Source: Neorhizobium galegae bv. orientalis str. HAMBI 540 (GTDB lineage: Bacteria; Pseudomonadota; Alphaproteobacteria; Rhizobiales; Rhizobiaceae). From it: DNA of 64,000 bases. This document shows positions 6,003 through 11,511 of this stretch, in pieces; position 1 is the first letter of the stretch; every line of letters starts with the position of its first letter. Where the stretch lies: contig NZ_HG938353.1 in assembly GCF_000731315.1 (NCBI RefSeq), forward strand, positions 2,728,001 through 2,792,000, read 5' to 3'. Below the pieces are notes generated by a model. It worked only from the letters and a program-made list of their open reading frames with translations. It was not told where the DNA came from and did not search any database. The position numbers and the translations under genes are program-made.

Positions 6003-6466
6003 AGGACGCTCCTCTTCCGTGATCGGAAAAGGACGTACAGGATGTGCCCGCTCCCCATGAGCGAACCCTTATACGAACGCAAAGCGTCACCCGGACTACC
6101 GACCGGGCCGTGACTTTTGCACGTCCGGCTTCCTTATCCGAAATGACCGAAACTCTGTCAACCACCAGAATTAGGGGCAGGTCTCTGAACGGACCTCGCA
6201 ATCACTCGCTAACTGGGGCTCAATCGACGCAAGCTGGACGGCATTTGATCAGAGCTTAGGCAGCTGATGTTTTTCAAGGCAGGAGATTTATTCACCCCCT
6301 TCTAAAGTAGGGAGCTTGCCGAGTACCAGAATCAGCGCATTTACTGGTCGGGGAGCATCGAAACTGTATTTTTCTGATGCGCGGAATTCTTTTTCCGCCA
6401 ATTGCGCACAGTTCTTGCATTGCCCTCACCGTTGTATTCTTATGGCCAAAAAAGGGGAATGCGCCT
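6003..6466 (+). other. Intergenic region before the ATP-grasp gene
   Basis: About 460 bases between the divergent monooxygenase and ATP-grasp genes. I see no gene, RNA gene or strong repeat. The only clear signal is the AAAGGGGAAT ribosome site at 6451-6460 at its right end. Confidence 0.5.
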
Positions 6467-7876
6467 TTGGCATTTGATGAAATGTTGACTGCGGAAAACC
6501 TTCCGCGACCGCCATACAAGACCTATCACGAATGGTATGCCAGTCAGGATGCTGCACACCTGATCCGCAAAACCCAGGATGCGGAAAACATATTCAGAAG
6601 GACGGGCATCACATTCGCGGTCTATGGACACGCGGACAGTTCCGAAAAGCTCATCCCCTTCGACATCATTCCCCGCATCATCTCCGCCCGTGAATGGCGC
6701 AAGCTGGCTCAGGGCATCGAGCAGCGGGTTCTGGCGCTCAACGCCTTCCTCGACGACATCTACCACAAGCAGGAGATCATCAAGGCCGGCCGCATTCCCC
6801 GCGCGCTGATCGAGAGGAACGTCACCTTCCTCCCCGAAATGATCGGCTTCAAGCCGCCCGGCGGCGTCTACACCCACATCGTCGGCACCGATATCGTGCG
6901 TACCGGCGAGGACCAGTTCTACGTGCTGGAGGACAATGCCCGCACGCCGTCCGGGGTTTCCTACATGCTGGAAAACCGGGAAACCATGATGCAGATGTTC
7001 CCGGAACTGTTTGCGCTGAACAAGGTCCAGCGGGTCGAGGACTATCCGCGGCTGCTGCGCCAGTCGCTCGCCTCGCTTGCTCCTCCCGGCTGCAACGGCC
7101 GGCCCCGCGTCGCGGTACTGACGCCCGGCATCTTCAACTCGGCCTATTACGAACACTCGTTCCTCGCCGACCAGATGGGCGTCGAGCTCGTCGAGGGCGG
7201 CGACCTGCGCGTCATCGACGGCCGCGTCAAGATGCGCACCACACGGGGCTACGAGGCAATCGACGTCCTCTACCGCCGCGTCGACGACGACTTCCTCGAT
7301 CCGATGACTTTCCGCGCCGATTCGGCGCTCGGCATTCCCGGCATCATGGACGTCTATCGCGCCGGCAACATCACCATCGCCAATGCGCCCGGCACCGGCA
7401 TCTGCGACGACAAGGCGATCTATTCCTACATGCCCGAGATCGTCGAATTTTATACCGGCCGCAAGGCGCTGCTCGAAAACGTGCCTACTTGGCGCTGTTC
7501 CGAGCCTGACAGCCTCAAATACGTGCTGGAGCACATCGAAGAACTGGTCATCAAGGAAGTGCACGGGTCCGGCGGCTACGGCATGCTGGTCGGCCCGACG
7601 GCGAGCAAGAAGGAGCGCACCGACTTTGCCGAGAAGCTGGCGGCTAGGCCCGACAACTACATCGCCCAGCCGACGCTGGCGCTGTCCACCGTGCCGATCT
7701 TCGTCAACAAGGGGATTGCCCCCCGCCACGTCGACCTGCGTCCCTATGTGCTCGTTTCCGACAAGGTGAAGATCATCCCCGGCGGCTTGACCCGCGTGGC
7801 CCTGAAACAGGGGTCGCTGGTGGTCAATTCCAGCCAGGGCGGCGGCACCAAGGACACCTGGGTACTGGAAGATTGA
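6467..7876 (+). CDS. Circularly permuted ATP-grasp type 2 protein
   Basis: This 469-residue protein belongs to the circularly permuted ATP-grasp family (COG2308), predicted to form amide bonds between a carboxylate and an amine using ATP. Recognisable stretches are WYASQDA near the start, NIFRRTGITFAVYG, IPFDIIPRIISAREW, the conserved GGVYTHIVGTDIVR, YVLEDNARTPSGVSYMLENR and the closing VNSSQGGGTKDTWVLED. TTG at 6467 is chosen because homologues begin MAFDEM and an AGGGGA site lies nine bases upstream; ATG 6482 is the alternative. It heads a three-gene operon with alpha-E and transglutaminase-like proteins (12 bases to the next gene). The true substrate is unknown. Confidence 0.88.
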   Translation: MAFDEMLTAENLPRPPYKTYHEWYASQDAAHLIRKTQDAENIFRRTGITFAVYGHADSSEKLIPFDIIPRIISAREWRKLAQGIEQRVLALNAFLDDIYHKQEIIKAGRIPRALIERNVTFLPEMIGFKPPGGVYTHIVGTDIVRTGEDQFYVLEDNARTPSGVSYMLENRETMMQMFPELFALNKVQRVEDYPRLLRQSLASLAPPGCNGRPRVAVLTPGIFNSAYYEHSFLADQMGVELVEGGDLRVIDGRVKMRTTRGYEAIDVLYRRVDDDFLDPMTFRADSALGIPGIMDVYRAGNITIANAPGTGICDDKAIYSYMPEIVEFYTGRKALLENVPTWRCSEPDSLKYVLEHIEELVIKEVHGSGGYGMLVGPTASKKERTDFAEKLAARPDNYIAQPTLALSTVPIFVNKGIAPRHVDLRPYVLVSDKVKIIPGGLTRVALKQGSLVVNSSQGGGTKDTWVLED

Positions 7877-7888
7877 GGTCGTAGAGAC

Positions 7889-8830
7889 ATGCTCGGAAGA
7901 ACTGCAAACGGCCTTTACTGGATGTTCCGCTATATCGAGCGGGCAGAAAATATCGCCCGCCTCGTCGATGCCGGCCTGCGCGTGTCGCTGACCCGCGCCG
8001 GCTCCTCCGACGAGGACTGGCACGGCGTGCTCGAAAGTGCGGGCGTGCGCGAAGCCTATTCGGAAGTGCACACCGAACTGACGGCGGCGGACGCCATCGA
8101 TTACCTGCTGCGCGACCAGGCCAACCCGTCGAGCGTCATGTCCTGCATCGAGTTCGGACGCAACAACGCCCGCATGGTGCGCACGGCGCTGACCCGCGAG
8201 ACCTGGGAGGCGACCAACGAATGCTGGATCGACCTCAAAGCCCGGCTTGCCCGCAAGCAGAAGGCGACCGACCTGCCCGAGCTGATCGACGTCATCAAGC
8301 ACCGCTGCGGCCTGATCCGTGGCGCCTTCCACGGTTCGATGCTGAGAAACGACCTCTACAATTTCTCGCGCATCGGCACCTTCATCGAACGCGCCGATAA
8401 CACCAGCCGCATCCTCGACGTGAAATATTACGTGCTGCTGCCGGCGATCAGCCAGGTCGGCTCGAAGCTCGACAACTACCAATGGGAATCGATACTGCGC
8501 TCGGTCTCCGCCCACCGTTCCTACGGCTGGGTCTATGACGGCGAATATCAGTCGGCCAACATCGCCGATTTCCTGATCCTGAAAGTCCAGATGCCACGCT
8601 CGCTGGCTTACTGCTACGAGAAGATCACCAACAATCTCGATTATCTGGCGCAAACCTATGATGAGCGGCTGAAGGCGCACGAGACGGCGGCGGCAATCCG
8701 CTCGACCCTGAAGCGCGGCTCAATTTCTGACATCATGGACCAGGGCCTGCACGAATTCCTGGAGGATTTCGTCAGCCGCAACAACCAGCTCAGCGCCGAA
8801 ATCTCCGACGGCTACCGCTTTTACCAGTAA
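7889..8830 (+). CDS. Alpha-E domain-containing protein
   Basis: A 313-residue, mainly helical protein of the alpha-E family (COG2307). It opens with the typical MLGRTANGLYWMFRYIERAENIARLVDAG and contains CIEFGRNNARMVR and FIERADNTSRILDVKYY, helical segments with conserved Arg/Glu pairs that are diagnostic. No enzymatic activity is established; the family almost always stands beside the circularly permuted ATP-grasp protein and is thought to work with it. It sits 12 bases after that gene and 27 before the transglutaminase-like gene, so the three are surely one transcript. Confidence 0.9.
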   Translation: MLGRTANGLYWMFRYIERAENIARLVDAGLRVSLTRAGSSDEDWHGVLESAGVREAYSEVHTELTAADAIDYLLRDQANPSSVMSCIEFGRNNARMVRTALTRETWEATNECWIDLKARLARKQKATDLPELIDVIKHRCGLIRGAFHGSMLRNDLYNFSRIGTFIERADNTSRILDVKYYVLLPAISQVGSKLDNYQWESILRSVSAHRSYGWVYDGEYQSANIADFLILKVQMPRSLAYCYEKITNNLDYLAQTYDERLKAHETAAAIRSTLKRGSISDIMDQGLHEFLEDFVSRNNQLSAEISDGYRFYQ

Positions 8831-8857
8831 AGCCAACAGGCACAGGATTTACCGCAC

Positions 8858-9688
8858 ATGCGGCTGAAGATTTCCCATACGACCGAATATCTCTATGACG
8901 AGCCGGTGCCCTATTCGCTGCAACGGCTCAGACTGACGCCGATCGACGGGCCCGGCCAGAAAGTCATCAACTGGTCGATCACCGTCGATGGCGCCAAGAT
9001 CGAGGCAGGTTATGCCGACCAGTTCGGCAACCGCGTCGAACTGGTCTCCACCGAAGGCACCGAGCACACGATCCGCATCACCGCGTCCGGCGAGGTGGAG
9101 ACCCAGGACCGCGCCGGCGTCTTCGGTCCGCACCAGGGCTTCTGCCCGCTCTGGCTGTTCCTGCGCGAGACGGCGCTGACCAAACCCGGCAAGCTCATCC
9201 GCGAGCTTGCCAAAAGCCTCGAGGGCGACAGCGAGCTTGCCAGGATGCACGCCCTAATGGAGAAGATCCACGAGACCGTCACCTATGTGCCGGGCGCGAC
9301 CGGCACCCAGACGACCGCCGAACAGGCGCTGGAGGCAAAGACCGGCGTCTGTCAGGACCACACCCATATCTTCATCACTGCCGCCCGCCTGCTGGATATC
9401 CCGGCGCGCTACATTTCCGGCTACCTGCTGATGGAAGGCGAGACCGAACAGGCCGCTACCCATGCGTGGGCGGAAGTGCATCTGCCGGGCCTCGGCTGGG
9501 TCGGCTTCGACACGTCGAACAAGATCTGCCCGAACGACAGCTACGTGCGGGTCGCCTCCGGCCTCTGCTACCGCGACTGTGCGCCCGTCTCCGGCATGCG
9601 CCTCGGTCCGGCCAGCGAAAACCTCAAGGTTTCGCTGACGGTGGCGCAAAGCCAAAGCCAGCAGGGCCAGACGCAGTCCCAGGGGTGA
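8858..9688 (+). CDS. Transglutaminase-like cysteine peptidase family protein
   Basis: This 276-residue protein has an N-terminal beta-rich domain (MRLKISHTTEYLYDEPV, as in bacterial transglutaminase N-domains) and a transglutaminase core. The catalytic triad is visible as Cys165 (TGVCQDHTH), His202 (THAWAEVHLPGLGW) and Asp218 (GFDTSNK). There is no signal peptide, so it acts in the cytoplasm. Such proteins cleave or form isopeptide bonds; next to an ATP-grasp amidoligase it may cut or transfer the product. It is the last gene of the operon. The C-terminus is a Gln/Ser-rich tail with no obvious role. Confidence 0.9.
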   Translation: MRLKISHTTEYLYDEPVPYSLQRLRLTPIDGPGQKVINWSITVDGAKIEAGYADQFGNRVELVSTEGTEHTIRITASGEVETQDRAGVFGPHQGFCPLWLFLRETALTKPGKLIRELAKSLEGDSELARMHALMEKIHETVTYVPGATGTQTTAEQALEAKTGVCQDHTHIFITAARLLDIPARYISGYLLMEGETEQAATHAWAEVHLPGLGWVGFDTSNKICPNDSYVRVASGLCYRDCAPVSGMRLGPASENLKVSLTVAQSQSQQGQTQSQG

Positions 9689-11031: not shown

Positions 11032-11511
11032 ATGCTGTTTGGGCAATCGGTCTTCCAGTCGGTGCTGACGCGGCTGAAGCAGGAGCACGGCGAAGACGAG
11101 AGCGAAGAGGCAGGCACGGGCTTCCGCATCAAGGGGCTCGGCATGGGTTTCGTCGCGCCGACGGATGACGGTCCAGTGGTGACCGCAACCGGGACCGAAG
11201 CCTATTTCGCCTTCCTTCCCGACGTGGCCGAGATCGAAATCGAATCGATGCGGGCGGAAGATGAACCGCAAGATCTGCCGCCGCCGATCATTCCCGCCCA
11301 TCTGCTGCGGCTGACGACCGAGGAAATCGCTGCGGAGCTTGCCATCACGGCTGCCGATACCGAGGCGACGCTCGGCGAGAAACGACGGCATTTCGCCAAG
11401 GCCAACCATCCAGATGGCGTCGCCCCGGAATTGCGGGAAAACGCCAACACCCGCATGAAGACCGCCAATTTCCTGATCGACACCGCGATCAAGGGTCTCT
11501 TCTGGCGCTAG
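11032..11511 (+). CDS. J-domain-like (DnaJ-related) protein
   Basis: A 159-residue protein with no membrane segment. Its C-terminal 65 residues look like a J-domain: helix LTTEEIAAELAI, then RRHFAKANHPDG with the HPD tripeptide at 126-128, then a helix RENANTRMKTANFLIDTAI. HPD is the motif by which J-proteins stimulate Hsp70 (DnaK) ATPase. The N-terminal 90 residues are of unknown fold and rich in acidic residues. It could be a specialised DnaK co-chaperone. The start ATG at 11032 follows AGAGGTGG. Confidence 0.72.
   Translation: MLFGQSVFQSVLTRLKQEHGEDESEEAGTGFRIKGLGMGFVAPTDDGPVVTATGTEAYFAFLPDVAEIEIESMRAEDEPQDLPPPIIPAHLLRLTTEEIAAELAITAADTEATLGEKRRHFAKANHPDGVAPELRENANTRMKTANFLIDTAIKGLFWR

What the first reader, a model, noticed from the sequence alone, without database searches (positions are those of the whole stretch)
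6467..9688. ATP-grasp / alpha-E / transglutaminase operon: an uncharacterised peptide-modifying system
Three tightly spaced genes form the set predicted to make and cut unusual amide bonds. The chemistry, substrate and benefit to the cell remain undescribed. No proteasome-like (Anbu-type) peptidase, a common companion, lies next to it, so this copy may be a reduced form, with the Cys165/His202/Asp218 peptidase taking that place. This is the best candidate in the window for a new system.
Basis: partly seen in the sequence, partly recalled or inferred. Interest (0 to 1): 0.75.

Follow-up and report, generated by a model that had tools for sequence, protein, structure and literature searches.

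The report
Amide-bond operon that lost its protease
Three adjacent genes in a soil bacterium related to rhizobia form a known but poorly understood bacterial system predicted to make and cut amide bonds; this branch of the family has lost a fourth, proteasome-like gene that its relatives keep.

Summary
In detail: 6467-9688 encodes a circularly permuted ATP-grasp with intact catalytic residues, an alpha-E protein and a Cys/His/Asp transglutaminase-fold protein, 12 and 27 bp apart. It is not a new system but the three-gene core of the "Anbu operon" predicted in 2009; a Yersinia homologue of the ATP-grasp releases phosphate from ATP, and Pseudomonas and Burkholderia homologues are induced by nitrogen limitation. 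Proteasome-like Anbu is absent from the whole genome and from 27 of 27 surveyed genomes of this clade. A tree nests that clade (29 tips, support 0.996) among Anbu-bearing relatives: one ancestral loss. Another clade (11 tips, support 1.0) lost the transglutaminase from the locus and kept Anbu. ATP-grasp and alpha-E are the constant pair (257 of 257 loci); all 197 Anbu genomes found also have alpha-E, not the reverse. Most likely an ATP-dependent amide ligase with alpha-E as partner and a transglutaminase-fold hydrolase or acyltransferase for the product (inferred). "Reduced form" is right; "taking Anbu's place" is unproven, since relatives have both genes and 14 of 177 wider loci have neither nearby. 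Ordinary identity, informative evolution.

The parts
6401..6445 (+). Conserved promoter-like block: GCAYG, then TTCTTGCAT, 17 nt, TCTTAT (TCAAAT in most relatives)
   Evidence: CTTGC[AT] at -66..-44 in 78 of 79 named loci and 27 of 29 clade tips; the -25 G of a sigma54 site is present in 1 of 78. Which sigma factor reads it is inference.
6450..6459 (+). Ribosome-binding site (AAAAGGGGAA) before the TTG start
   Evidence: Sequence shows it; GGGGA stands out in the alignment of 57 upstream regions
6467..7876 (+). Circularly permuted type 2 ATP-grasp, 469 aa, TTG start; conserved K316, K363, GGYG 369-372, D142, E155, N157, D423, N454
   Evidence: Pfam; solved relative 3n6x E 4.5e-186 over residues 2-469; these residues at 100% (rounded) in 182 type I proteins
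7889..8830 (+). Alpha-E protein, 313 aa, all-helical model; conserved E17-R18 and E167-R168-x-D170
   Evidence: Pfam; conservation in 263 proteins; AlphaFold2 mean pLDDT 89.4; no solved relative by sequence
8858..9688 (+). Transglutaminase-fold protein, 276 aa, Cys165/His202/Asp218, GVCQD motif
   Evidence: Pfam; solved relatives 3isr E 7.5e-15 and 6g49 E 8.1e-5; triad conserved

Best explanation
An Anbu-less form of the ATP-grasp/alpha-E/transglutaminase system. The ATP-grasp protein activates a carboxylate with ATP and joins it to an amine (inferred from family and intact residues); alpha-E is its partner, probably holding substrate or product (inferred from unbroken adjacency and from fusion in the paralogous locus); the transglutaminase-fold protein hydrolyses or transfers the acyl group of that product through a Cys165 thioester (inferred). 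The ancestor also had Anbu; it was lost at the base of this Rhizobiaceae clade, leaving the transglutaminase-fold enzyme as the only dedicated hydrolase at the locus (loss shown by tree and survey; functional meaning inferred).
For: Families and intact catalytic residues. ATP-grasp next to alpha-E in 257 of 257 type I loci while transglutaminase and Anbu vary. Purifying selection on all three genes. Anbu absent from 27 of 27 surveyed genomes of the clade, which is nested in Anbu-bearing lineages. All 197 Anbu genomes in three surveys have alpha-E; the Anbu query is itself confirmed against solved Anbu structures (5nyj E 1.2e-66). Published: the Yersinia ATP-grasp releases orthophosphate from ATP (PMC6376114, passages).
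Against: No ligase activity or substrate is reported in what I read for any member. The Yersinia ATP-grasp released phosphate without added substrate and was not stimulated by Anbu, Gln or Glu, so plain ATP hydrolysis is not excluded, and no specific interaction between operon proteins was detected (PMC6376114). 14 of 177 loci outside the named 80 have neither transglutaminase nor Anbu within 2.5 kb, so a local hydrolase is not obligatory. Alpha-E gave no clear fold match.
Confidence: 0.55

Rival explanations
1. A nitrogen-starvation proteolysis or nitrogen-salvage module: the system modifies or breaks down proteins or peptides when nitrogen is short, and the transglutaminase-fold enzyme releases ammonia.
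For: Induction by nitrogen limitation, or NtrC/sigma54 dependence, in P. putida and B. cenocepacia (PMC5491218, PMC8050072, PMC7801951, PMC3325844; passages); the domains associate with urea-metabolism domains in marine metagenomes (PMC3597751, passages); sigma54-like sites upstream in 20 of 37 phylum-sample loci at p<=0.02. The ammonia idea is raised in PMC6376114.
Against: In this clade the promoter block lacks the -25 G of sigma54 sites; the window's best sigma54 match has p 0.1, and only 6 of 80 named loci reach p<=0.02, though 38 of 80 reach p<=0.1. The main text of an S. meliloti nitrogen-stress study has no occurrence of transglutaminase, DUF40 or alpha-E (its tables were not read).
Confidence: 0.25
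2. The ATP-grasp protein is an ATPase or kinase-like enzyme and the locus does not form amide bonds.
For: Phosphate release by the Yersinia homologue without added substrate (PMC6376114); the fused paralogues have lost ATP-grasp residues yet persist, so the fold may also have a non-catalytic role.
Against: The candidate ATP and Mg residues are kept at 100% (rounded) in 182 type I proteins, as expected for a working ATP-grasp enzyme; this does not by itself prove ligation.
Confidence: 0.15
3. A decaying remnant of the four-gene operon.
For: One gene lost.
Against: dN/dS 0.01-0.19; conserved promoter block and start codon; three genes together in 80 of 80 named loci.
Confidence: 0.03

Closest known systems
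Anbu operon (ATP-grasp, alpha-E, transglutaminase, Anbu)
   Same: Same first three genes in the same order; the nearest relatives in the same family carry the four-gene form.
   Different: No Anbu at the locus or in the genome; promoter block without the sigma54 -25 G.
P. putida PP_2685-PP_2688 and B. cenocepacia I35_5080-83
   Same: Homologous genes by their published descriptions; the B. cenocepacia cluster as listed has no Anbu either.
   Different: Those are reported as nitrogen or NtrC regulated; I have no such evidence here.
3n6x, putative glutathionylspermidine synthase
   Same: Full-length homology with the key motifs.
   Different: A solved structure only; its name is no evidence that this protein makes glutathionylspermidine.
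Type II locus (large transglutaminase, fused ATP-grasp-alpha-E, transglutaminase), also in this genome
   Same: Same domains, at C1:3105173-3111248.
   Different: Fused, and its ATP-grasp half lacks several residues that are invariant in type I.

Membership tests
ATP-grasp/alpha-E core system (COG2308/COG2307; numbers partly recalled) | Circularly permuted ATP-grasp next to alpha-E | tested here: met
ATP-grasp/alpha-E core system (COG2308/COG2307; numbers partly recalled) | ATP-grasp catalytic residues intact | tested here: met
   roles of the residues assigned by recalled analogy
ATP-grasp/alpha-E core system (COG2308/COG2307; numbers partly recalled) | Amide-ligase activity | not testable with these tools
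   Only phosphate release is published, for a homologue (PMC6376114, passages)
Anbu operon, four-gene form | Transglutaminase-fold gene third in order | tested here: met
Anbu operon, four-gene form | Anbu gene present | tested here: not met
   No match in the genome with an Anbu query; the only PF00227 match is HslV
Anbu operon, four-gene form | Nitrogen-starvation (NtrC/sigma54) control | tested here: inconclusive
   -25 G of a sigma54 site absent in a conserved promoter block; no expression data for this clade
Transglutaminase-like cysteine peptidase superfamily | Cys-His-Asp triad | tested here: met
   217, 218 and 218 of 220
Transglutaminase-like cysteine peptidase superfamily | Peptidase or cross-linking activity | not testable with these tools
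   No activity data seen
Pupylation-like tag-and-degrade system | Dedicated proteasome-type protease with the ligase | tested here: not met
Pupylation-like tag-and-degrade system | Small protein tag | not tested
   No search for tags was made

The most novel reading that the evidence does not exclude
The transglutaminase-fold enzyme and Anbu are alternative hydrolases acting on one product of the ATP-grasp/alpha-E ligase: two radiations of one bacterial family each kept a different one at the locus, so Anbu, for which no activity was detected in the published assays I read, acts on that product rather than on unfolded proteins.
Probability: 0.25. Interest if true: 0.65.

Novelty: new member of a known kind. 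Interest (0 to 1): 0.42.

Why it matters
The substrates of Anbu and of this presumed ligase are open questions. A clade that lost Anbu and one that lost the transglutaminase from the locus, within one family that includes the laboratory strain S. meliloti, give natural knock-outs: comparing their conjugates or peptides could point to a shared product. In the surveys Anbu never occurs without alpha-E (197 of 197 genomes) while alpha-E often occurs without Anbu, which suggests that Anbu serves this system and is not a general protease.

Tried and rejected

Limits: the order (21), class (20) and phylum (37) loci were picked by me from longer lists, Anbu-less ones over-represented, so their proportions are not frequencies. 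The family set of 99 is 97 of the 100 alpha-E genomes (left out: the window's own, counted apart; G376, partial; G293, distant) plus 2 from the order survey. One weak Anbu match (G293, E 5.4e-4) was not counted as Anbu. Alpha-E was sought with PF04168 in the class and order surveys and with the window's protein in the family survey, and either may match the fused type too. The DNA held after alpha-E is under 4 kb in 10 of the 80 named loci and in 2 of the 26 fetched clade loci. The tree is one FastTree run on ATP-grasp plus alpha-E, midpoint-rooted; several inner nodes are weak. Whether the Anbu-keeping clade has a transglutaminase elsewhere in its genomes was not tested.

Full report
What is there. 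Three ORFs on the + strand: 6467-7876, 7889-8830 and 8858-9688, with gaps of 12 and 27 bp. They are a circularly permuted type 2 ATP-grasp (PF14403 6e-165), an alpha-E protein (PF04168 6.1e-94) and a transglutaminase-fold protein with the bacterial N-terminal domain (PF01841 5.4e-23, PF08379 3.3e-22). The first most likely starts at TTG 6467, a start codon kept in 78 of 79 scorable named loci and 29 of 29 clade tips. The genome is close to Neorhizobium: Neorhizobium sp. SHOUNA12A has an alpha-E identical over 313 residues. The downstream PhyH-like gene (9950) is missing from several close relatives' loci, so I leave it out of the unit.

Is it functional? The three genes stand together in 80 of 80 named Rhizobiaceae loci, one of them cut by a contig end and one with frame breaks. 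dN/dS against seven relatives is 0.01-0.06 (ATP-grasp), 0.06-0.12 (alpha-E) and 0.09-0.19 (transglutaminase). In 182 type I ATP-grasp proteins K316, K363, the GGYG loop 369-372, D142, E155, N157, D423 and N454 stand at 100% (rounded), and the same motifs are in the solved relative 3n6x, E 4.5e-186. Their roles as ATP and Mg ligands are assigned by recalled analogy with glutathionylspermidine synthase. Cys165/His202/Asp218 are kept in 217, 218 and 218 of 220 proteins; two transglutaminase-only proteins have Ser and one four-gene protein has Tyr in place of Cys165.

Anbu. The own genome (6.46 Mb, 99.97% complete) has one PF00227 match, HslV by NCBIfam (1.4e-86), and no match to an Anbu query. 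That query (Limimaricola, L015) is a true Anbu by sequence: 5nyj E 1.2e-66. In three partly overlapping samples the numbers of genomes with Anbu and with alpha-E are 34 and 48 of 142 (class), 94 and 109 of 150 (order), 71 and 100 of 121 (family). All 197 distinct Anbu genomes also have alpha-E; alpha-E without Anbu occurs in 14, 15 and 29 genomes. In the family sample one further weak Anbu match (G293, E 5.4e-4) was left out.

Gene content of the locus. In 257 type I loci (80 named; 99 family; 21 order, 20 class and 37 phylum, the last three sets picked by me), ATP-grasp lies next to alpha-E in all 257. The named 80 are all transglutaminase without Anbu in the DNA held. The family 99 are 61 with both, 27 with transglutaminase only, 9 with Anbu only and 2 with neither within 2.5 kb; of those 2, one has Anbu 3.8 kb away and one elsewhere in its genome. 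Over the 177 loci outside the named set, 14 have neither within 2.5 kb: 2 family, 1 order, 3 class, 8 phylum.

Evolution. A tree of 184 tips on ATP-grasp plus alpha-E (781 columns) puts the window in a 29-tip transglutaminase-only clade, support 0.996, next to 5 tips that have both genes (that 5-tip grouping itself is weak, 0.111). Parsimony gives Anbu present two nodes below and ambiguous one node below. For the 27 tips with a surveyed whole genome, Anbu is absent from the genome. A separate 11-tip clade, support 1.0, has no transglutaminase at the locus; parsimony gives it present in deeper nodes, and no remnant is found with 28 queries. So within one family one branch lost Anbu and another lost the transglutaminase from the locus. 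Over the whole tree changes are frequent (20 for Anbu, 12 for transglutaminase), so such losses are not unique to this family.

Regulation. Upstream of 6467 lies a block conserved in this clade: GCAYG, TTCTTGCAT, 17 nt, then TCAAAT or TCTTAT; CTTGC[AT] is at -66..-44 in 78 of 79 named loci. It resembles a sigma54 promoter except for the missing -25 G (present in 1 of 78). CTTGC[AT] is also there in 37 of 61 four-gene family loci, with TGAAAT 18 nt later in 15 of the 37, but in only 1 of 11 loci of the Anbu-keeping clade. I read it as a sigma70-type promoter, which is inference. By contrast 20 of 37 phylum-sample loci have a sigma54-like site at p<=0.02; full-score sites occur in two order loci, one class locus and one phylum locus, and the B. 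cenocepacia control scores 20.7 of 21.7. Published nitrogen control: I35_5080-83 in B. cenocepacia (PMC5491218, passages), PP_2685 and PP_2688 in P. putida (PMC8050072, passage), PP2685-2687 (PMC3325844, passage). In PMC7801951 (passages) PP_2686-2688 rise 11- to 37-fold over three value columns while Anbu PP_2685 shows 1.1, 4.8 and 1.5; PMC3325844 instead lists 11.1 and 4.0 for PP2685, so the two differ on Anbu. Whether any of this applies to rhizobia is unknown.

The second locus in this genome. At C1:3105173-3111248 lie a large transglutaminase, a fused ATP-grasp-alpha-E protein and a transglutaminase. Among 13 fused proteins the type I residues N157, K316, D423 and N454 occur in none, and E155 and G372 in 1 of 13; K363 is kept in 31% and D142 in 85%. 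Some of these proteins are partial and the loop region aligns poorly, so single positions are uncertain. The fused ATP-grasp half is probably not a standard ATP-dependent ligase, which makes the window's copy the likely active one (inference).

Mechanism, with status. Shown here: gene identities, intact residues, unbroken ATP-grasp/alpha-E pairing, Anbu loss in this clade, transglutaminase loss from the locus in another. Published for a homologue: phosphate release from ATP, no detected interaction between operon proteins, no Anbu peptidase activity on the substrates tried (PMC6376114; passages). Inferred: ligation through an acyl phosphate, alpha-E as partner, transglutaminase-fold enzyme as hydrolase or acyltransferase on the product. 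The alpha-E model is confident (pLDDT 89.4), but no informative fold match was obtained.

Novelty. The system was predicted by Iyer et al. 2009, which I could not read; I know it through PMC5666114 and PMC6376114 (passages). I saw no paper reporting the two opposite losses, but no search was aimed at that; the searches made cover open-licence papers on the system in general, so this is weak evidence of absence.

Noticed in passing
L002 34-2349 (own genome C1:3108199-3110514): The fused ATP-grasp-alpha-E paralogue belongs to 13 fused proteins in which N157, K316, D423 and N454 of type I are absent and E155 and G372 are nearly so, while D142 is mostly kept. Probably a pseudo-ATP-grasp kept for another role.
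   Followed up: partly
L148, L150-L153, L214, L219-L222, L224: A Rhizobiaceae clade with ATP-grasp and alpha-E but no transglutaminase at the locus; in 9 of the 11 loci Anbu lies within 1.8 kb of alpha-E.
   Followed up: partly
L013 (B. cenocepacia): Its ATP-grasp/alpha-E pair sits inside the Rhizobiaceae part of the tree, with L128, L129, L131 and L140 (support 1.0), suggesting horizontal transfer.
   Followed up: no
L016, L193 6030-6863, L195 4204-4950 (-): An arginyl-tRNA-protein transferase gene lies beside the locus (L016 by annotation; L193 and L195 by NCBIfam 6.5e-91 and 1.2e-83); another amide-forming enzyme.
   Followed up: partly
window 11032-11511: Small protein without a Pfam match, ends in a J-domain-like HPD stretch (by eye); present downstream of the operon in many of the closest loci, absent from most R. 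leguminosarum-like ones.
   Followed up: no
own genome C1:301251-302435 and C2:1047889-1048221: Further transglutaminase-fold genes, one a tandem pair; context not examined.
   Followed up: no
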